Source of the DNA: Bradyrhizobium quebecense
GTDB taxonomy: Bacteria > Pseudomonadota > Alphaproteobacteria > Rhizobiales > Xanthobacteraceae
Assembly: GCF_013373795.3 (NCBI RefSeq)
Contig: NZ_CP088022.1
Coordinates: forward strand, 7,378,001-7,442,000
Length of the DNA: 64,000 nucleotides
Direction of reading: 5' to 3'
Shown: in pieces, positions 56,442-64,000 of the stretch
Position numbering within the stretch: the stretch's first letter is position 1
How the letters are laid out: the number at the start of each line of letters is the position of its first letter
Made by a program: the position numbers and the translations under genes
Notes under the pieces: generated by a model
The model's database searches: none
The model's input: only the letters and a program-made list of their open reading frames with translations
What the model was told of the DNA's origin: nothing

Positions 56442-56596
56442 CAATGTCCTGCCCGTTGCAAAGCGGCGGCTTCGCCTCGGGTCGTCCGGCCGTTTTGGCC
56501 GAAGACAGGGAAACGCGCGTTCAGCCTTCTTTATTGGAATTGCCGCCAATCAGGCAAGCCGCCAGTTCGCGGCAAACTCCGCCACGCGGAACGGGC

Positions 56597-57283
56597 TCAC
56601 CAGACCATCGGAACCAGGCGGTAACGCACGCGCCCGAGATATTCGGCATAGCCGTCGAGCTCGGCAGTGAGCATCCGCTCCTCCATCATGGATCTCAGGC
56701 CGAGCAGCGCCGCCATGACCGGCACGATGCCAAGGCCCCACCAGGATCCGAGCAGCAGCGGCGTGCCGACATAGGTCAACAGGCCGCTGGCATAGATCGG
56801 GTGGCGCACATAGGCGTACGGCCCCGTGGTCACCGCAGCATGCCCGCGCTCGCGCTGGATCTTCACGACGGGGGCGGCGTAGCTGTTTTCGCGGTAGGTC
56901 CGATAGACGATGTAGAACGATGCGGCGATCATCACCGCGCCGGCGCATTGCAGCCAGAACGGGACGAACGATGTCCGGTAGCGCACCGCGTCGAGCGCCA
57001 TCAGCGGCAGCCATGTCAGCCACAACAGCGGCATGATCGTCGTGATGACGCGATCCCACCCGGCCTGGCCGCGCGCGGTGCGGCGCTCCGCCAGTAGCCC
57101 CGGATCATGTCTTGCGAGCCATGCCTCCGTGATCAGTCCGCCGATCGTGATCTCGAGCAGGAACATCCAGGCGCCGGCCCATCGCATGGTGCCGGCCGCT
57201 AGAAACAGGAGCGTCCCAAGGCCCACAAACGTGCATGCGGCGCGGCGCAGATTGATGCGAGGAGGATTGCCGTTCTGGTTCAT
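56597..57283 (-). CDS. Isoprenylcysteine carboxyl methyltransferase-like membrane enzyme
   Basis: The 228-residue protein has several hydrophobic segments and ends with the ICMT/PEMT motif TTGPYAYVRHPIYASGLLTY with EERMLTAELDGYAEYLGRVR after it, which binds S-adenosylmethionine. GGAGAGAGAC precedes ATG 57283. It lies downstream of the small genes of the subtilase locus on the same strand, 99 bases after them, so it may be part of that transcript. The substrate is unknown. Confidence 0.82.
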   Translation of the reverse strand: MNQNGNPPRINLRRAACTFVGLGTLLFLAAGTMRWAGAWMFLLEITIGGLITEAWLARHDPGLLAERRTARGQAGWDRVITTIMPLLWLTWLPLMALDAVRYRTSFVPFWLQCAGAVMIAASFYIVYRTYRENSYAAPVVKIQRERGHAAVTTGPYAYVRHPIYASGLLTYVGTPLLLGSWWGLGIVPVMAALLGLRSMMEERMLTAELDGYAEYLGRVRYRLVPMVW

Positions 57284-57382
57284 GTCTCTCTCCGACGAGC
57301 GGCAACGGCCGCGCCGCCGGACCGGGCGGGCCGTTGCATGTCCGGGTAACGGATCGAAGCGCCGTTCAATGCGTGGACCTGA

Positions 57383-57721
57383 TTACGGTCTGCGGGTCCA
57401 GTTTCGTGCCTGTCCGGAATAGACCTTGCTCGGCAGCGCGCGGGCCGTTGGATCGAGCAGGATCTTCATCGCGGTGTTGAGCCGCGCCTCCGAACGCGGC
57501 GAGCCGTCATGGCGCATCTGCTGCGGAGCACCGGGGCCCTGCGGCGGCGCCATGTAGGCCGACGTTGTCGGCGGGGCGGGCGTGGTGGCGATCTTCGGAC
57601 GGGCAACAACGGCCGCCTCCAACGGGCGCCGCGCGTCGGCGAGGCTTGACGCTGCGGATGCTTCCGCGGGCGGCGGAGAGGCGGCGCTGTCGGATCCGGA
57701 TTTGCGGGGCGGTTTTGCCAT
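57383..57721 (-). CDS. Hypothetical protein, 112 aa, downstream of the subtilase locus
   Basis: ATG 57721 follows GGAGCCGATGCC. The first two thirds are low-complexity Ala/Pro/Ser-rich, the last third (RSEARLNTAMKILLDPTARA) is helical. No signal peptide, no family recognised. It lies 36 bases after the 59-residue gene, so it is probably co-transcribed with it. Confidence 0.6.
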   Translation of the reverse strand: MAKPPRKSGSDSAASPPPAEASAASSLADARRPLEAAVVARPKIATTPAPPTTSAYMAPPQGPGAPQQMRHDGSPRSEARLNTAMKILLDPTARALPSKVYSGQARNWTRRP

Positions 57722-57757
57722 GGCATCGGCTCCATAGGTTCGGTGATGACGACGACG

Positions 57758-57937
57758 TCAGGATTTGTCTTCGTCGGATGTGGTGCGTTTGGCGATGATC
57801 GGGTTGCGGTCGCTGATCGCGGCGAGCAGCGAGGCGTGGCTCACGACTGACGACACGACGATCTTTCCGGACGGCTCCATCCGGCGACCGTTCTGCTGCT
57901 GTTGCTGTGGGCTCCTGGCGGTGGATTTCTGCATCAT
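57758..57937 (-). CDS. Small protein, 59 aa, candidate substrate of the subtilase locus
   Basis: The start ATG 57937 (or 57934) has a strong GAGGAGG ribosome-binding site. The product has a Gln-run head (SPQQQQQNGRR), a hydrophobic Val/Ser/Ala stretch (SGKIVVSSVVSHASLLAAIS) and a charged end (TTSDEDKS). It matches no family I know. Position and size would suit a precursor peptide, but no recognition motif is known. Confidence 0.6.
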   Translation of the reverse strand: MMQKSTARSPQQQQQNGRRMEPSGKIVVSSVVSHASLLAAISDRNPIIAKRTTSDEDKS

Positions 57938-57995
57938 GTCGGCCTCCTCGAGGGCAGGGGTGGGGCCCGACAGCGCCGGGCCCCGAGTTTGGCGA

Positions 57996-58187
57996 TCAGA
58001 TGCCGAAAGCACCGAGGACGCCCGGCAGCGCCTGCACGGCCGTACCGAGGATGTCCTGCCAACCCTGCGGGTTGACCGACCCGTTGGTCGCCACTTCGGC
58101 AATCCGCTTCGGACCGCGCTCGATGCCCTCACACTGGATCGGGCTACGCACGCTGCCGAAGGTCTCAAAGTCGTTCCTTGCGTACAT
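57996..58187 (-). CDS. Small protein, 63 aa, candidate precursor peptide
   Basis: ATG 58187 has AAGGAGCTGAAC upstream, one of the best ribosome-binding sites in this part. The product has a charged N-terminal half with one Cys (SPIQCEGIERGPKR) and a hydrophobic, amphipathic C terminus (GTAVQALPGVLGAFGI). That charge-to-hydrophobic layout is common for leader plus core in ribosomal peptide products. No cyanobactin recognition sequence is visible. It is the first small gene after the PatG-like gene. Confidence 0.6.
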   Translation of the reverse strand: MYARNDFETFGSVRSPIQCEGIERGPKRIAEVATNGSVNPQGWQDILGTAVQALPGVLGAFGI

Positions 58188-58361
58188 GTTCAGCTCCTTC
58201 TTTCGGTTTGAATTGACGGCAACTACGGGAGGTGGGCACCGACCGGGGCAGCCGTCGCTGGACGTCGCCCAAGGGATCGCTCATCGCGTCGATCCCCTGG
58301 ACCACGTGACGCTAATTCGCGCCACGTTCTGATCTCCTCCGGACGCAGAGGAGCAATCGCG

Positions 58362-59594
58362 TCAATAGACCTGCCACTGCCGCAGCGGCCCGACCGCCAC
58401 CGGCACCACGTCGCTCACGTCGATCGTGTACTGATAGACTTCGCGCGCTTGGGTCAGGACCTGCGTCGGGTTGAAGAAGCGGTAGGTCACGTCGTGGCAT
58501 TCCGAGTCCGGCCGGCAGATGACGCTCTGGTCGACTTCGACGGTGTCGAGCCGCAGGCCCTTCTTGGCAGCGTCAATGAAGATCTTCCGCGTGTTGTAGG
58601 CATTCATCGCGGAATAGTTCAGCGCGCGGTCCTGCGGGGAGAGACCGACATTGCGGAACTCGTTGTAGATCCGCTCGAGGAAGCCTTCTGCGCCGTCCGG
58701 CCAGGGGAGCGGCCCGAACAGCGTGTAGAGATCCCACTGGTAGAAGCCGCGCCAATCGGTCACCAGCGTCGGCACGACGGTGCCATTGAGCAGCTTGGTC
58801 GTGTTGGTGCTGTCGACCCAGCCAGCCATCGAGACCCGCGCAACGCCGCCGGGCGGCGGGAATGCCGGGCGCGTCGCTGGTGGCTCGCCGCCGGCGGGGG
58901 CCGACATCGTCGCGATCGCCACGGTGCGGGTCGTCGCGGGATCGTCGTGCGAAACTTCCTGATGCCACAGTGCCAGGATCAGCGCGGCGAAGAACCCGAG
59001 ACCGAACACGTCGAGCGGCTTGATCGCATAGATCGGGATCGAATCGATCGTCATCGTCCAGGTGATGGCGTCGGCGTCCGGGAAGTTGTTGCCGGCCCCG
59101 GCCGGCGTCGCGGTCTCGCCTTCGGCCTGATTCAGCAGATAGCGCGCCATGATCGCCGGATTGTATGGCGCCGAGGTATCGCCGGAGTGGTCGCGCTCGG
59201 GCCCGAAGGCCGGATCGCCGCGGCCGATCAGGCTGTCGCGCCAGTTGGCGATCGCCTGCACGAAGTAGTCGAGGCGCGCTTCCTTGCCGAAATCGTAGAA
59301 CAGCCGGCCGATCGGGAAGGCGAGCTGTCCGGTGGACTCTGCCGTAGCGCCCCGCGGACGCATGCCGCCGCCACAGCCGCAGCTCTTCTCGCTGGTTCGA
59401 ACCGCGGGGGCTTCGTACATCGGCAGCGCCTGGGGCATTGCGACGGGAAGCGCATTGCTCGGCATCAGCGCGTGCAGCTGCTGCGGTTGCAGCCAGGTTT
59501 GCTGCGGCATCATGCCGGCCGTTGGCATCGCCATCTGCGGCATCATCATCGGCGGCATCACCATCTGGGGTGCCGGTGCCGGCATCCAGACCAT
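58362..59594 (-). CDS. PatG-type C-terminal domain protein (second part of the subtilase)
   Basis: The 410-residue frame opens with a Met/Pro/Gln-rich linker, then has QLAFPIGRLFYDFGKEARLD, a membrane-like segment (LGFFAALILALWHQE), LYTLFGPLPWPDGAEGFLER, CRPDSECHDVTYRFFNP and a C-terminal YQYTIDVSDVVPVAVGPLRQ. These resemble the C-terminal region of the PatA/PatG family of cyanobactin maturation proteases. The start ATG has no ribosome-binding site and lies in the end of the subtilase gene in another frame. One extra base in the run at 59609-59613 would join both parts. It may therefore be the second half of one broken or frameshifted gene. Confidence 0.78.
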   Translation of the reverse strand: MVWMPAPAPQMVMPPMMMPQMAMPTAGMMPQQTWLQPQQLHALMPSNALPVAMPQALPMYEAPAVRTSEKSCGCGGGMRPRGATAESTGQLAFPIGRLFYDFGKEARLDYFVQAIANWRDSLIGRGDPAFGPERDHSGDTSAPYNPAIMARYLLNQAEGETATPAGAGNNFPDADAITWTMTIDSIPIYAIKPLDVFGLGFFAALILALWHQEVSHDDPATTRTVAIATMSAPAGGEPPATRPAFPPPGGVARVSMAGWVDSTNTTKLLNGTVVPTLVTDWRGFYQWDLYTLFGPLPWPDGAEGFLERIYNEFRNVGLSPQDRALNYSAMNAYNTRKIFIDAAKKGLRLDTVEVDQSVICRPDSECHDVTYRFFNPTQVLTQAREVYQYTIDVSDVVPVAVGPLRQWQVY

Positions 59595-60817
59595 GTCGCC
59601 GCCCGCATGGGGGCGTGATACGGATAAGGCGCGGGTGCGGCGATCGGCGCGGCGACGACGCCGTGATCAACGGGGACGGCCATGGCCGCAGGTGCCGCCG
59701 GCGCGGCAGGCTGCGCCTCGCTTGGCATGATCCCGGCGTTGCTTCGCAGGACCGAGCCGTCCGGCCCGAATATGCGTGGAGCCGATGGTGCAGACATTGC
59801 TGATAGATCTCCCATGGAACCCTCTCTGGTTGCAGTTGGCTGAGCGGCGGATGACGGTTGGACGAAAGGGCGCGCGGACACTCCCCAGAAGCGGGGAGGC
59901 GCGGCCGTGGCACCCGACGGCATGACGGCGTCCGCCTGCTCGCCAAGCAGGGCGGCGACAGCCGCGGGAATATCGAGCCGTCCGGCGAGACAGCGCGAGG
60001 CGCTGCCGTCGTTGCGGCAGGGCACCGCGCTTTCGAGCAGCGCAGCATGGACGGCTTGCGGATCGGCCTTGCGTCCGTTCTGGCGCAGGCATGAGAGCAG
60101 CAGCGCGACGACACCGGTGACGATCGGCGCCGCGTAGCTCGTTCCGGAACGGAGGCTGACGTTGCGGACCGGCGAGGCGCCGGCGATGTTCTCGCCCGGT
60201 GCCAGGATGCCGTTTTCGAGATAGGCGTCGCCGAAATTGCTGAACGGCAGCGGGTTGCCGGCCAGATCGCATGCGCCGACCGCAAGCACCGAAGCGAGGC
60301 TGCCCGGCACCTGGACGCAGCGGCAGCCATCATTGCCGGCGGCGGCGACGATCAGCTTGCCGGCGCGTTCGCAGGCGCGCACCGCGTCGACCAGAATGCG
60401 ATCGGCCTGTCCCGTCGCGGATTGCTGACCGCTGCTGATGTTGATGATGTCGGCGCCCATCGCTAACGCCTGGTTGATCGCGAGCGCCAATGTGCTTTGC
60501 GAGGACGGCTCGATCTGCCCGGCGGCATTCTCGCGATAGATCGAGAACACGGTTGCGCTGCAGTTCGGCGCGACGCCGAGCACCGGGCTGCCGGGTGTCC
60601 CCATCAGCACGCTCGTGACATGCGTGCCGTGCTCGGACTGGATGATCGATGAAGACGGCGCGACGAATTCGCCGCCCATGGCGACACGGGCCTGCCTGAG
60701 CGAGGGATGATTGAGAGCGACGGGACCGTCGATGATCGCGATCTTCACCGCGGGGTCGCCACCCGACGTTCTCTGCCACAAGGCAGCTAGACCAGCGATG
60801 TCGGCAACTGGATTCAT
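59558..60817 (-). CDS. S8 subtilase of the PatA/PatG (cyanobactin maturation) type
   Basis: The 419-residue frame starts NPVADIAGLAALWQRTSGG, typical of PatA/PatG proteases, and has the subtilisin triad: Asp30 (IAIIDGPV), His63 (SEHGTHVTSV) and Ser227 (RSGTSYAAP), with the oxyanion Asn162 (AAGNDG). There is no signal peptide or prodomain. After residue 330 it becomes Pro/Ala-rich and then ends abruptly with a Trp/Arg/His-rich tail (TWSGCRHRHPRW) that looks out of frame. In cyanobactin pathways PatA removes the leader and PatG cleaves and closes the ring. ATG 60817 is preferred to 60910. Confidence 0.88.
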   Translation of the reverse strand: MNPVADIAGLAALWQRTSGGDPAVKIAIIDGPVALNHPSLRQARVAMGGEFVAPSSSIIQSEHGTHVTSVLMGTPGSPVLGVAPNCSATVFSIYRENAAGQIEPSSQSTLALAINQALAMGADIINISSGQQSATGQADRILVDAVRACERAGKLIVAAAGNDGCRCVQVPGSLASVLAVGACDLAGNPLPFSNFGDAYLENGILAPGENIAGASPVRNVSLRSGTSYAAPIVTGVVALLLSCLRQNGRKADPQAVHAALLESAVPCRNDGSASRCLAGRLDIPAAVAALLGEQADAVMPSGATAAPPRFWGVSARPFVQPSSAAQPTATREGSMGDLSAMSAPSAPRIFGPDGSVLRSNAGIMPSEAQPAAPAAPAAMAVPVDHGVVAAPIAAPAPYPYHAPMRAATWSGCRHRHPRW

Positions 60818-61169
60818 GAAATCGATCCTGGCCGATCTGCTGCGAATTCGTGCAGCCGATCCGTCTTCCACGGCAATCTGCAACCGCGCAGCGAACGAAA
60901 AGAGCGGCATGTCGCTGCGTTGGTGCTGTTGTGGCAGGTGTGCCGCGAAAGGCCTATTCGCCGCGGTGGATCAGAAAGGATCGAGCCGATGATACGGATC
61001 AACCGATCCGTGAGATCGATCCCGCGCCTCGAAAGATCGATCAAAGGGTTTAGTCGGGATCGGTCTCACGGCGTGATGCGGCGCGCATGCGTGCAAAGCC
61101 GCGCCGCATCTGCGCACCAATGCGTGCACGCGCTGCGGTCAGTCGAATACGGAATTCAGGTCGCTGGTG
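60818..61169. other. Intergenic region upstream of the subtilase gene
   Basis: These 352 bases hold the presumed promoter of the subtilase locus. CGGATC and GATCCG, separated by AACC, form a short perfect hairpin near 60997-61012, followed by GATCGAT repeats. No gene is supported. Confidence 0.45.
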
Positions 61170-61604
61170 TCAGTCGAGCTCGCGGCGACGATCGAGAGCC
61201 GGCGCAGATGATGCGATCCATGGCGCTTCGCGAACCCGCCGCATCGCCTGCGCCCGGCGCGGCAGGCCGAGCTTTTGCAGCACGTGATGGACGTGATGCT
61301 TGACGGTGGCAAGACTGAGATTGAGATCGCGTGCGATCTCCTTGTTCGACATGCCCTGCCCGATGAGCTTGAGGACCTCGCCTTCGCGGCGCGTCAGGCC
61401 CTGGTCGGTATCGATCGTATCCGCCTGACGTTCCATGCAAAACAACGCGCGCAGCAGTCCGCCGGAAATCTCGGCGCTGCAGGCAAGCCGCCCCGATGCC
61501 ACGTCCGACAGTGCGCGGCACAGCTCGTCGAAGCTGGCATTCCGGGAAATGTAGCCGCTGAACCCGGCTCGGCCGCAGCGGACCACGTCGCGCCCGAAAC
61601 TCAA
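61170..61604 (-). pseudogene. NarL/LuxR-type response regulator, N-terminally truncated
   Basis: The frame encodes only the last third of a receiver domain (RDVVRCGRAGFSGYISRNAS) and an intact LuxR-type helix-turn-helix (LTRREGEVLKLIGQGMSNKE, NLSLATVKHHVHHVLQKLG). The phospho-acceptor Asp and the first two thirds of the receiver are missing: the frame closes upstream with TGA, and neither other frame continues it. TTG 61604 has no ribosome-binding site. The stump might still bind DNA, but it is most likely a decayed regulator, perhaps once of the nearby subtilase locus. Confidence 0.7.
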
Positions 61605-62024
61605 CGAAATGGCGGATGAAAAGCCGTCTGCAGGTCGACGGCACCGGCATCCAGAAAGTCATGAAGGTAAGTATGCGGTATGCTGCCAGAGGTTGTATTA
61701 TATTATCAGGTCGAAATTACGGCTCTGATACGCGCGGGATCAAGAGATACAGTTCACATTCGAGCGTCGTGCCGGCAGCACGACGCAGGATACGAAGTGA
61801 TGGAGAGCGCGGCAAGGTGGCGACACGCAGCGCGTGTGTACCGTGGGGCTGCAGGAATCTCGTGGTGACTTCAACGCGGTAGTCATCGACGCCTAGATAT
61901 TTAGATAATTGACGCGTGTGGGTGCGGGTGCTCTGTACAAGATTACGTGTTCTTCGGCCGAGTGTGAGCGACGCAATGCCGCGCCTCGGATGTGCTCAAT
62001 CCAGATGCAGATCGACAGGATTCC
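61605..62024. other. AT-richer intergenic region
   Basis: These 420 bases separate the regulator remnant from the protease gene. An unusually AT-rich part (GTATTATATTATCAGG, near 61698) stands out from the surrounding DNA and could be a promoter or a scar of an earlier insertion. No gene is supported. Confidence 0.45.
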
Positions 62025-62786
62025 ATGACGAGCGTGATTCGAGCGACAGCCTTTCTGACCCTGTTGACGGCAACGCCGGCCTTCGCGATCGTCGGTGGTG
62101 GCGCGTCGTCGACCGATGGCGTCGCGCGCGCCGTCGTCACCATCGTCGGCTCGCGTGGCAATTTCTGCACCGGCGCGCTGATCGCGCCGAAGGTGGTGCT
62201 GACCGCGGCGCATTGCGTGCAGCCCGGTGCCGACTACAAGATCGTCGATTATGGGCCGGACCGGCAGCCGAAGCTGCAGAACGTCAAAACGGTCGCGATC
62301 CATCCCGGCTTTCGGATGCAGGCGATGACCAATCATGTCGCGACCGCCGATATCGCGCTGCTGCAGCTTGCGGACCCAGCCGCAGGCAAGGCGCCAGCCG
62401 TGCTCGGCATGCCCAACATTCCGATCCAGGTCGGCGGCCGTTTCACGGTCGCGGGCGTCGGTGTCACCGCGCGCGGCGACGGCAAGAGCGGCGGCAGCAT
62501 TCGCGTCGCCGGCCTGATCGCGAGCGGCAAGCCCGGCACCCTGCAGATTCGTCTGGTCGATCCGGTCGGGCAGGGCGTGCGCGACGGGCTCGGCGCCTGC
62601 ACCGGCGATTCCGGTGCGCCCGTGTTCGAGGACAAACCAGGCGGGCCTGTCATCGTCGGTGTGGTGAGCTGGTCCACCGGCCCGAGCGGCACCGCCGGCT
62701 GCGGCGGCATCACCGGGGTGACGCCGCTCACGCTCTATCGCGACTGGGTGATGCAGACCGCGCGCCAGTGGGGTGCGAGCTTCTGA
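62025..62786 (+). CDS. Exported trypsin-like serine protease (S1)
   Basis: The 253-residue protein has a signal peptide ending TPAFAIVGGG, and IVGGG resembles the activation site of chymotrypsin-fold proteases. The triad is in LTAAHCV (His), TADIALLQL (Asp) and GACTGDSGAPVF (Ser). The cysteines pair as in trypsins (NFC...AAHC; GAC...AGC). It is probably periplasmic or secreted. Its stop is 31 bases from the end of a transposase gene, so an IS has inserted right behind it. Confidence 0.9.
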   Translation: MTSVIRATAFLTLLTATPAFAIVGGGASSTDGVARAVVTIVGSRGNFCTGALIAPKVVLTAAHCVQPGADYKIVDYGPDRQPKLQNVKTVAIHPGFRMQAMTNHVATADIALLQLADPAAGKAPAVLGMPNIPIQVGGRFTVAGVGVTARGDGKSGGSIRVAGLIASGKPGTLQIRLVDPVGQGVRDGLGACTGDSGAPVFEDKPGGPVIVGVVSWSTGPSGTAGCGGITGVTPLTLYRDWVMQTARQWGASF

Positions 62787-62817: not shown

Positions 62818-64000
62818 TCACACATTCTGAAGCCTTAGATTGGCGCCGTATTTGATGGCGTGGAACTTGGCAAGGCCGATGCGGATGACTTTGGGACCCG
62901 GCTTGCCGTAGTAGCCGGTCCAGCCGCCGAGGCGTGCGATGACCCAAGCGACAAAGGCCAGGGATCCCTTCGGGTGCGGATTGCGTTGCCGCTCGGTCTT
63001 GCCTTCGAGCCGGGCGGAGACGGCTTCGAGGATGGGTTGGTCGTCCGGCTCGAAGGCATCGCTCAGGAGCTGATCCGTGTTGCCGTCGCGGGCCTGGACG
63101 AGTTGCTTGATGGTGATGGCCGCAACGGCTGCAGCAGCGACGAAGTTGATCATGGCCTGCGGGTCGCCGATATCGGCTTCCTCTATATCGAAGCCTGCCG
63201 TCTTGAGCGTACGGAAGAACTCCTCGATCACCCAACGCGTCCGGTAGAAGCCGACCACTTGACGCGCGTCGTTCAATGTAGCGACAGCGTGGGTAGTCAA
63301 AAGCCGCCAATGCACAGGTGCGCTACCGTCTTTCGGCTCCGATACCTCGCGGACATCGACCAGCGTCAGGTGAACCGTCTCGGGCAACGTCGGATCGGCT
63401 CCATGGAGCGGCCGGCATACGGCCACCGGCGCGAAGCGCACTGCGAACTCGGTATCGCGCGCGCGCCGTCCTGGTGCGGCGGGGACCGTCATGGCAACGC
63501 GCCCTTGTTCGGCCTGGGCGTCGATGAAGGTGAACAGCAAATCCGGGTCTTCTTCGGACCCCTCGATCCGCCGATTCTGGCAGGCCCTCACAACCAATTC
63601 GACGTTTTGCGGACGCTTCACGAACAGTTCGTAAAAGTCGCTTTCGCGGTCCGATACCATCGTGACGCTGGCCGCCGCAGCCAGTACCTCACCCGCCCGT
63701 TCGCTGCTCTCGATCCATCGTTGCGATTCCTTAGCCGCCGTCGCCCGCTTGCGCCGTGGTGCCAACTCCTCTCGGTTACGGTTCCAGACCTGCATCGAGA
63801 CCAGACCGAGCAACCCTTGCGTCTCGGCCTCTACCGCCAGTGCCACATGCAGCAACAAACCCGCGGCATTGCCTTTGGCGACCGGTCCGTAGCATTGTCG
63901 CGACCGCCGGCCGCCCAAGATCAATTCCGACGTGTCCTGTGCGACAACAACATGCCGACCAGCCGCTCGCTGCCCGGTGAGGTCTCCGGCATGCCGTGAC
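62818..64000 (-). mobile_element. IS4-family transposase, cut by the window end
   Basis: The frame is open to the window edge, so the N terminus lies outside. The catalytic DDE residues are visible: the first Asp in AQDTSELILG, the second in MVSDRESDFYE, and the third as Glu in the YREK motif FYRTRWVIEEFFRTLK (Y-x2-R-x3-E-x6-K), which marks the IS4 family. About 393 residues are in the window. The IS end must lie between 62787 and 62817, but the terminal inverted repeat cannot be identified without the other end. Confidence 0.88.

What the first reader, a model, noticed from the sequence alone, without database searches (positions are those of the whole stretch)
57383..60817. PatA/PatG-type peptide-maturation locus outside cyanobacteria
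An S8 subtilase with the PatA/PatG N-terminal pattern and intact Asp-His-Ser triad is followed by a PatG-like C-terminal domain, and then by three short genes with good ribosome-binding sites, all on one strand. A membrane methyltransferase follows. In cyanobacteria such proteases cut and close ribosomally made peptides. No heterocyclase or prenyltransferase is here, and no known recognition sequence appears in the small proteins, so this could be a distinct, undescribed peptide pathway.
Basis: partly seen in the sequence, partly recalled or inferred. Interest (0 to 1): 0.85.

Follow-up and report, generated by a model that had tools for sequence, protein, structure and literature searches.

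The report
PatA-type peptide-maturation cassette in Bradyrhizobium
A soil bacterium carries a compact gene cassette in which a cutting enzyme known from cyanobacterial peptide natural products sits beside a short gene that looks like the precursor of a released peptide, and the same pairing, with a shared start-of-protein tag, turns up in several other bacterial phyla.

Summary
The locus is real. In 21 other Bradyrhizobium loci the subtilase and the "PatG-like second protein" are one intact protein (S8 + linker + PatG_D/PatG_C); in the window one base is missing from a C-run in the linker, giving two ORFs. By sequence it is PatA-type (leader-removing), not a PatG macrocyclase. The three short genes follow it in 22 of 22 Bradyrhizobium loci and, partly more weakly, in four distant alphaproteobacterial loci. 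The first, sm1, has leader/core architecture: a conserved block RSPIQCEGIERG...GSVNPQ, then a variable tail. The block is a variant of an N-terminal motif, [RNK]xPxQ[SAC]xx[VI]xR, often followed by an RSII-like [VIL]xP[SQA] site, found beside PatA-type proteases in 24 of 27 non-Bradyrhizobium loci (seven phyla by record title) and present in a true cyanobactin precursor and in PatB. So "no known recognition sequence" is wrong; "cut and close" is unsupported. Regulator, protease, sm1-3 and methyltransferase form a 5.4-5.9 kb cassette between two genes otherwise 54-135 bp apart. The window's copy has two lesions. Best reading: a heterocyclase-free, PatA-type peptide-maturation cassette releasing a linear hydrophobic peptide; cleavage and product are inferred, not shown.

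The parts
56550..61991 (.). Cassette: the stretch between the HAD and trypsin-like genes
   Evidence: The two flanking genes lie 5442 bp apart here and 5721-5852 bp in G004, G010, G019, but 54-135 bp apart in 32 of 38 genus genomes where both were found on one contig.
61170..61604 (-). LuxR/NarL-type regulator, N-terminally truncated in this copy
   Evidence: GerE domain 2.1e-18; only the part after residue 90-101 of relatives is found in window 60501-62500.
59558..60817 (-). PatA-type S8 protease part (start MNP at 60817), with most of the linker
   Evidence: PF00082 1.4e-31; TIGR03895 positions 1-241, 2.4e-80; start conserved in relatives.
59609..59613 (.). C-run (G-run on +) where the window lacks one base against relatives, splitting the protease
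   Evidence: 19 of 19 relatives compared have one base more at or beside the run.
58362..59594 (-). C-terminal part of the protease: PatG_D and PatG_C (the 'cyanobactin DUF')
   Evidence: PF18065 3.2e-33, PF18047 1.2e-7.
57996..58187 (-). sm1, 63 aa, proposed precursor; leader about 58065-58187, proposed core about 57999-58064
   Evidence: 54-sequence alignment with fixed block and variable C-terminus; conservation 0.86 vs 0.54; pN/pS 0.19 vs 0.50; follows the protease in 22 of 22 Bradyrhizobium loci.
57758..57937 (-). sm2, 58-59 aa, conserved partner of unknown role
   Evidence: 22 of 22 Bradyrhizobium loci, L049 2.2e-18, L059 0.0017, weak in L052 0.41 and L050 0.7.
57383..57721 (-). sm3, 112 aa, conserved C-terminal part ...LxDPxARxxxSxxYSGQxRxW; unknown role
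   Evidence: 22 of 22 Bradyrhizobium loci, L049 8.3e-33, L052 1.5e-23, L050 9e-22.
56597..57283 (-). ICMT/PEMT-type membrane methyltransferase, part of the cassette in Bradyrhizobium only
   Evidence: PF04191 2.2e-11, PF04140 2.1e-8; 72% or more identical only in the 4 cassette genomes of 40; absent from the 27 other loci at E<=1.

Best explanation
A RiPP-type peptide-maturation cassette inherited as a unit. The PatA-type protease (S8 domain, linker, DUF) recognises the conserved block of the sm1 precursor, cuts after the RSII-like [VIL]xP[SQA] site (here GSVNPQ), and releases a linear C-terminal peptide: in Bradyrhizobium a Cys-free hydrophobic one of about 22 residues, in most loci of other phyla a Cys-rich, probably disulfide-bonded one. 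sm2 and sm3 are conserved partners of unknown role; the methyltransferase and the LuxR regulator are Bradyrhizobium additions. Shown by sequence: protease family and subtype, synteny, leader/core pattern, sharing of the block, insertion of the cassette. Inferred: recognition, cleavage, cut site, linear product, export and function. In the window itself the protease is split and the regulator shortened, so this copy may not work; 21 other Bradyrhizobium loci have the protease intact.
For: PatA-type by profile against solved structures and over the TIGR03895 cut-off when intact. sm1 leader/core architecture, several copies on some contigs as judged by equal contig lengths, two copies in L050 and L052. 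Order protease-sm1-sm2-sm3 in 22 of 22 Bradyrhizobium loci and in L049, L050, L052, partly weak for sm2. Motif at the N-terminus of 41 ORFs, all on the protease strand, in 24 of 27 other loci; 19 ORFs in 22 follow-up loci against 0.1 by resampling. Same block in a TIGR03678 precursor. RSII-like site in 23 of 45 non-PatB ORFs against 3.3 by shuffling. Cassette with empty sites.
Against: No chemistry was seen. Only 1 of 45 ORFs has the strict RSII consensus and 22 of 45 lack even the relaxed one. L063 and L065 have no motif ORF; of 5 new non-cyanobacterial loci only L124 matched strictly, L120 by near-misses, and L121-L123 show another motif. PatB bears the motif but is reported as non-essential and is not known as a precursor, so the tag need not mean precursor. 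sm1 residues 1-13 are also variable (0.56). No transporter was found among the proteins scanned in the cassette.
Confidence: 0.7

Rival explanations
1. One reading: the protease both cuts and closes the peptide into a ring, PatG-fashion.
For: Family resemblance; the PatG macrocyclase domain is the next-best structural relative (246-251 bits).
Against: PatA-type proteases score 382-405 bits; one protease only; no AYDG/SYDG-like signal at the end of sm1, whereas the L137 precursor has SYDG repeats.
Confidence: 0.08
2. sm1 and its motif-bearing relatives are not precursors but partner or regulatory proteins that dock to the protease, as PatB might; the variable tails have another role.
For: PatB carries the same N-terminal block and is described as non-essential with unknown function (PMC4259220, PMC4663559). 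sm2 and sm3 show that conserved small non-precursor proteins do belong to the unit.
Against: Hypervariable tails behind a fixed block, paralogues, and an even number of Cys in 35 of 37 Cys-rich ORFs fit processed peptides better; the block also sits in a true cyanobactin precursor.
Confidence: 0.15
3. The window's copy is a decaying remnant with no function in this strain.
For: One-base deletion in the protease and loss of the N-terminal part of the regulator, the stretch being 279 bp shorter than in G004.
Against: The deletion is in a homopolymer and may be an assembly error; it falls in the linker, and loci exist where S8 and DUF are separate ORFs (L121-L123, L141); sm1-sm3 and the methyltransferase are open.
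Confidence: 0.4
4. A generic subtilase next to unrelated small genes.
For: Other S8 proteases are common in the genus.
Against: TIGR03895/PF18065 specificity; conserved order in 22 of 22 Bradyrhizobium loci.
Confidence: 0.02

Closest known systems
Cyanobactin pathways of the patellamide type (PatA-PatG, precursor PatE)
   Same: PatA-type S8 protease with C-terminal DUF; short precursor with an N-terminal block (L137: LPHQGKPVLR) and an RSII-like site before a variable core; a cluster can hold several precursor genes (PMC4663559, passages).
   Different: No PatG macrocyclase, no RSI or RSIII in sm1, no YcaO heterocyclase or prenyltransferase in the cassette, no PatB or PatC match; different host phylum; core hydrophobic and Cys-free.
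PatB/AcyB/McaB family (TIGR04220)
   Same: Same N-terminal block MRLPxxSPPVKR, beside a PatA-type protease.
   Different: sm1 does not match TIGR04220 at E<=1; sm2 and sm3 give 0.1-0.2% probability against PatB.
Non-cyanobacterial 'cyanobactin' genes reported in Saccharopolyspora sp. NFXS83 (PMC10145562) and Roseomonas oryzae (PMC8776678)
   Same: Cyanobactin-type genes outside cyanobacteria; L071 bears the title Saccharopolyspora sp. NFXS83.
   Different: The passages I read describe no precursor family, N-terminal block or cross-phylum pattern.
NHLP/Nif11-type precursor families
   Same: Conserved leader, hypervariable core.
   Different: According to PMC4603692 (passages) these lack PatA/G-like proteases and belong to clusters with a cyclodehydratase; no such model was hit by sm1.

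Membership tests
PatA/PatG-family maturation protease (TIGR03895) | Whole-protein score above the curated cut-off | tested here: met
   Intact relative L031 458.8 bits, P0006 460.1, against 421.05; the two window halves alone 271 and 209.
PatA/PatG-family maturation protease (TIGR03895) | Asp-His-Ser triad and C-terminal DUF | tested here: met
   Asp69, His104 and Ser265 (L033 numbering) at least 90% conserved in 29 sequences (assignment as triad recalled); PF18047 and PF18065 over their cut-offs; DUF matches 4uvq with 189 bits.
Cyanobactin pathway | A PatG-type macrocyclase protease beside the PatA type | tested here: not met
   TIGR03895 search of the own genome: apart from the two halves of this gene only weak S8 hits elsewhere (E 5e-21 and 3e-15), none over the cut-off.
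Cyanobactin pathway | Precursor with RSI, RSII and RSIII | tested here: not met
   RSI and RSIII not seen in sm1; RSII only as a diverged GSVNPQ. Precursor models not hit by sm1 at E<=1.
Cyanobactin pathway | PatB and PatC short proteins | tested here: not met
   sm1-sm3: no NCBIfam match over a cut-off; sm2/sm3 against PatB 0.1-0.2%. PatC was not compared by profile.
Cyanobactin pathway | Heterocyclase and/or prenyltransferase (optional) | tested here: not met
   Not among the nine proteins scanned in and beside the cassette; the rest of the genome was not searched for them.
RiPP | Leader/core precursor with conserved leader and variable core beside a maturation enzyme | tested here: met
RiPP | Precursor is ribosomally made, cut (and modified) to a mature peptide | not testable with these tools
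   Needs an enzyme assay or mass spectrometry.

The most novel reading that the evidence does not exclude
The N-terminal block [RNK]xPxQ[SAGC]xx[VI]xR plus a [VIL]xP[SQA] cut site defines an unnamed, cross-phylum superfamily of protease-only RiPPs, mostly disulfide-rich, served by PatA-type S8-DUF proteases. Cyanobactins are one elaborated branch of it, and PatB is a relic or partner that bears the same tag. The proteases carry copies of the cut site in their own linker (at least one in 46 of 78 proteins parsed), which suggests self-processing that frees the enigmatic DUF, or a built-in pseudo-substrate.
Probability: 0.45. Interest if true: 0.85.

Novelty: new variant of a known kind. Interest (0 to 1): 0.74.

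Why it matters
It would take the PatA/DUF protease out of the cyanobactin niche and make it a general peptide-release enzyme. It gives a sequence tag for finding unannotated precursor genes: of the 11 tag-bearing ORFs that I submitted and that are neither PatB nor PatE, none matched an NCBIfam model above its cut-off. It makes two open questions testable: what the DUF kept in all characterised patellamide-like pathways does (PMC4259220), and what PatB is for. The Bradyrhizobium cassette, at one insertion site with cassette-free sister genomes, is a tractable place to test it.

Tried and rejected
sm3 or sm2 as PatB homologues: hhalign probability 0.1-0.2%, rejected. Methyltransferase as a general part of the system: no hit at E<=1 in the 27 non-Bradyrhizobium loci; kept as a Bradyrhizobium addition. 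HAD hydrolase and trypsin-like gene as parts: rejected, they are the flanks. A natural two-gene protease: rejected for Bradyrhizobium. A TGA reported inside the G010 match lies upstream of the real start. The core as a strongly cationic amphipathic helix: not supported, net charges -1 to +1 and mostly modest moments (seven cores typed). Pfam and PHROGs gave no significant family for the short genes. PADLOC, Rfam and structure prediction were not used. The whole genome was not searched for YcaO proteins; in other phyla I only looked at large ORFs of six loci by eye and scanned two of them. Literature: eight paper searches that ran; no listed paper appeared, from title and abstract start, to be about this motif or pairing, and I looked inside seven papers; most subscription journals and all preprints are missing from the library. 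The motif, RSII-like and linker patterns were written after seeing sequences, and the sequences are related, so shuffle and resampling counts overstate independence. The names PatA, PagA, PatG and PatG-DUF for the structure entries, the RSI consensus and the triad assignment are recalled.
Full report
1. What is there. On the minus strand the order is LuxR-type regulator (61170-61604), S8 subtilase (start MNP at 60817), an ORF with PatG_D and PatG_C (58362-59594), sm1 (57996-58187), sm2 (57758-57937), sm3 (57383-57721) and an ICMT/PEMT-type membrane methyltransferase (56597-57283). Shine-Dalgarno-like sequences stand before sm1, sm2 and the methyltransferase, a weaker one before sm3, none evident before the first ATG of the DUF ORF.

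2. The protease is one protein, split here. In 21 of 21 other Bradyrhizobium loci, and in L049, L050 and L052, S8 and DUF lie in one open frame. At the split, 19 of 19 relatives compared have one base more at or beside a C-run (two Bradyrhizobium loci, L033 and L034, were not in that comparison). The best match, B. altum Pear77 (L042), is 99% identical over 141 columns. An intact relative scores 458.8 bits with TIGR03895 (cut-off 421.05), the two halves of the window 271 and 209. A homopolymer indel may be an assembly error; I cannot tell. The regulator is short too: only the part after residue 90-101 of relatives is found, and the cassette is 279 bp shorter than in G004. So this copy has two lesions while the small genes are open.

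3. It is PatA-type. A profile of 29 relatives finds first 4h6w, 'N-terminal cyanobactin protease' (405 bits), and 4h6v/3zxx/3zxy (382-388), then 4h6x/4aks/4akt (246-251) and 4uvq (189), then ordinary subtilisins (129 and below among the 60 shown). I recall these as PagA, PatA, the PatG macrocyclase and the PatG-DUF. PatA-like enzymes cut after G(L/V)E(A/P)S, PatG-like ones before AYDG with macrocyclisation (PMC10885120, passages).

4. sm1 looks like a precursor. 53 proteins match it. In the alignment of 54 the block VRxPIQCEGIERGxxRxAEVAVSGSVNPQ is nearly fixed and the C-terminus hypervariable. Mean top-residue frequency is 0.56 in positions 1-13, 0.86 in 14-41 and 0.54 in 42-63. Judged by equal longest-contig lengths, five contigs seem to carry two or three members, three of them with a protease hit as well. 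In 22 Bradyrhizobium loci pN/pS is 0.19 for the leader and 0.50 for the core; sm2 0.29, sm3 0.35 (21 loci), methyltransferase 0.25. sm1 follows the protease in 22 of 22 Bradyrhizobium loci and in L049, L050 (twice), L052 (twice) and L059. sm2 and sm3 follow in the same order: 22 of 22; L049 clear for both; L050 and L052 clear for sm3 but weak for sm2 (0.7, 0.41); L059 sm2 0.0017, its contig ending there.

5. The same block in other phyla. The genome scan gave 45 loci, 18 titled Bradyrhizobium and 27 others. A strict N-terminal pattern, written after looking at these loci, occurs in 24 of the 27: 41 ORFs, all on the protease strand, and none in the 22 Bradyrhizobium sources, where sm1 has an N-terminal extension. 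The three without are L049 (it has the N-extended sm1), L063 and L065. By record title the 24 span seven phyla: Alphaproteobacteria, Bacteroidetes, Clostridia, Planctomycetes, Cyanobacteria, Actinobacteria, Acidobacteriota. Examples: MRLPIQSKPVARG...GIHPS (Mesorhizobium L056), MRLPVQSQPVQR...GGVLPS (Acidobacteriota L075), MNLPIQSQPVFR...GGINPS (L055), MRLPSQSPPVHR...GVEPS (Mesorhizobium L060, exact RSII consensus). L052 MRKPIQSPGVERG bridges to the Bradyrhizobium form RSPIQCEGIERG.

6. Follow-up test. PF18065 was then sought in more genomes: 2 of 385 in the class and 2 of 398 in the phylum (own genome counted in both, the other hits being contigs already seen), 5 of 294 in the phylum of G443 (Planctomycetes by the title of L078), 2 of 296 in that of G444 (L074) and 13 of 146 in that of G446 (L070), each including the centre genome. 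With the pattern fixed, 22 follow-up loci gave 19 ORFs against 0.1 from first-order Markov resampling, ten rounds. L118 and L119 were dropped beforehand because their contig lengths equal those of L052 and L060. Five of the 22 come from genomes already seen (L137-L141); the 17 new ones (L120-L136) gave 14 ORFs in 11 loci, seven of these loci through PatB. Against: of the 5 new non-cyanobacterial loci only L124 matched strictly. L120 has three near-misses (MKLPNLTPASRR, MKLPKQTVNRDRG, MRLPKFSMNVASR), and L121-L123 have S8 and DUF on separate ORFs with another motif, PGFTAExSLYK-like. L126 has a PatB just outside the pattern; L136 has nothing evident.

7. Link to cyanobactins. Two motif ORFs submitted, from L070 and L071, match PatB (TIGR04220, 4.5e-37; 7.3e-8, the latter below the cut-off), and the alignment of 11 such ORFs shows the same protein. 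A true patellamide-type precursor in L137 (TIGR03678, 1.9e-21) reads MDKKNILPHQGKPVLR...GVDAS-VCAPCVC-SYDG, so the block sits in true precursors too. Weak TIGR03678 hits of a Mesorhizobium and a cyanobacterial Cys-rich ORF (0.042, 0.019) fall on this block. The relaxed RSII-like site lies in 23 of 45 non-PatB ORFs against 3.3 by shuffling, the strict one in 1. 37 of the 45 have four or more Cys, and 35 of these 37 an even number, which suggests disulfides rather than azoles; relatedness makes the naive p-value (1e-8) too small.

8. Sites in the protease itself. In 29 aligned proteases the linker between S8 and DUF holds 48 G[VILMA]xPS sites (23 of 29 have one or more) against 2.8 by shuffling; S8 has 4, DUF 0. 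A wider, cruder parse of 78 proteins gave 46 with a site, 82 sites against 6.6, S8 10, DUF 0. Among the 17 more distant ones 5 have it; the other 12 read SVTPSEGC or similar just before the DUF. I read this as a possible self-cutting or pseudo-substrate element. It is a hypothesis: the pattern was chosen after seeing the sequences, and 32 of 78 lack it.

9. A cassette. The HAD gene below and the trypsin-like gene above lie 54-135 bp apart in 32 of the 38 genus genomes where both were found on one contig, and 5442-5852 bp apart in the four with the cassette (G000, G004, G010, G019); exceptions are G025 (1135 bp) and G015 (far apart). A methyltransferase of 72% identity or more occurs only in those four of 40; the best others are at most 54% identical. 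So regulator, protease, sm1-sm3 and methyltransferase came or went together. In the own genome sm1 has one strong match; the next is E 0.07.

10. Mechanism. Shown: family and subtype, synteny, leader/core architecture, shared block, insertion. Inferred: the protease reads the block, cuts after [VIL]xP[SQA], and frees a linear hydrophobic peptide of about 22 residues (window: GWQDILGTAVQALPGVLGAFGI, net charge -1, modest moment). Export, target and the roles of sm2, sm3 and the methyltransferase are unknown; a bacteriocin-like or membrane-active role is my guess. Against recognition by the DUF: isolated PatG-DUF did not bind PatE' by NMR (PMC4259220, three of four parts read); no PatA-DUF binding test was in the parts I read.

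11. Novelty. PMC4663559 (2015, passages) states that cyanobactin clusters were identified only in cyanobacteria; PMC10145562 (passages) and PMC8776678 (passage) report cyanobactin-type genes in Saccharopolyspora and Roseomonas. In eight searches I found no description of the motif, of the pairing across phyla, or of a Bradyrhizobium example. Relatives of the protease already carry the source name 'cyanobactin maturation PatA/PatG family protease', so the protease is known by name; the precursor family and the pattern are what looks new.

Noticed in passing
L121, L122, L123, L141: Loci with S8 and PatG_C on separate ORFs, a 42-72 aa ORF between them in some, and short, often Cys-rich ORFs, several copies in L121, starting with another N-terminal motif (M..MPGFTAExSLYK or similar); two submitted to NCBIfam had no hit. 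Possibly a second leader type of the same protease family.
   Followed up: partly
L078:15843-16337: A 165-aa ORF with the N-terminal block and an RSII-like site, followed by a phospholipase A2-like stretch (2.6e-4, below Pfam's cut-off): the tag may also sit on small folded proteins.
   Followed up: no
window 62818-63924: A DDE_Tnp_1 transposase ORF (3.3e-6) next to the trypsin-like flank gene; no match in L031-L033.
   Followed up: no
G025:C1:2733077-2734211: In this genus genome the HAD and trypsin-like genes are 1135 bp apart, so the site may hold other DNA there.
   Followed up: no
L058:12252-12497 and L061:6051-6275: Block-bearing ORFs with Asp/Glu/Gly-rich tails and no core Cys, unlike the Cys-rich neighbours.
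   Followed up: no
P0093 and P0100: PatG_C proteins of 1060 and 1232 aa whose listed Pfam domains include aminotransferase-type (PF00266, PF01212) and nitroreductase-type (PF00881) families (family names recalled).
   Followed up: no
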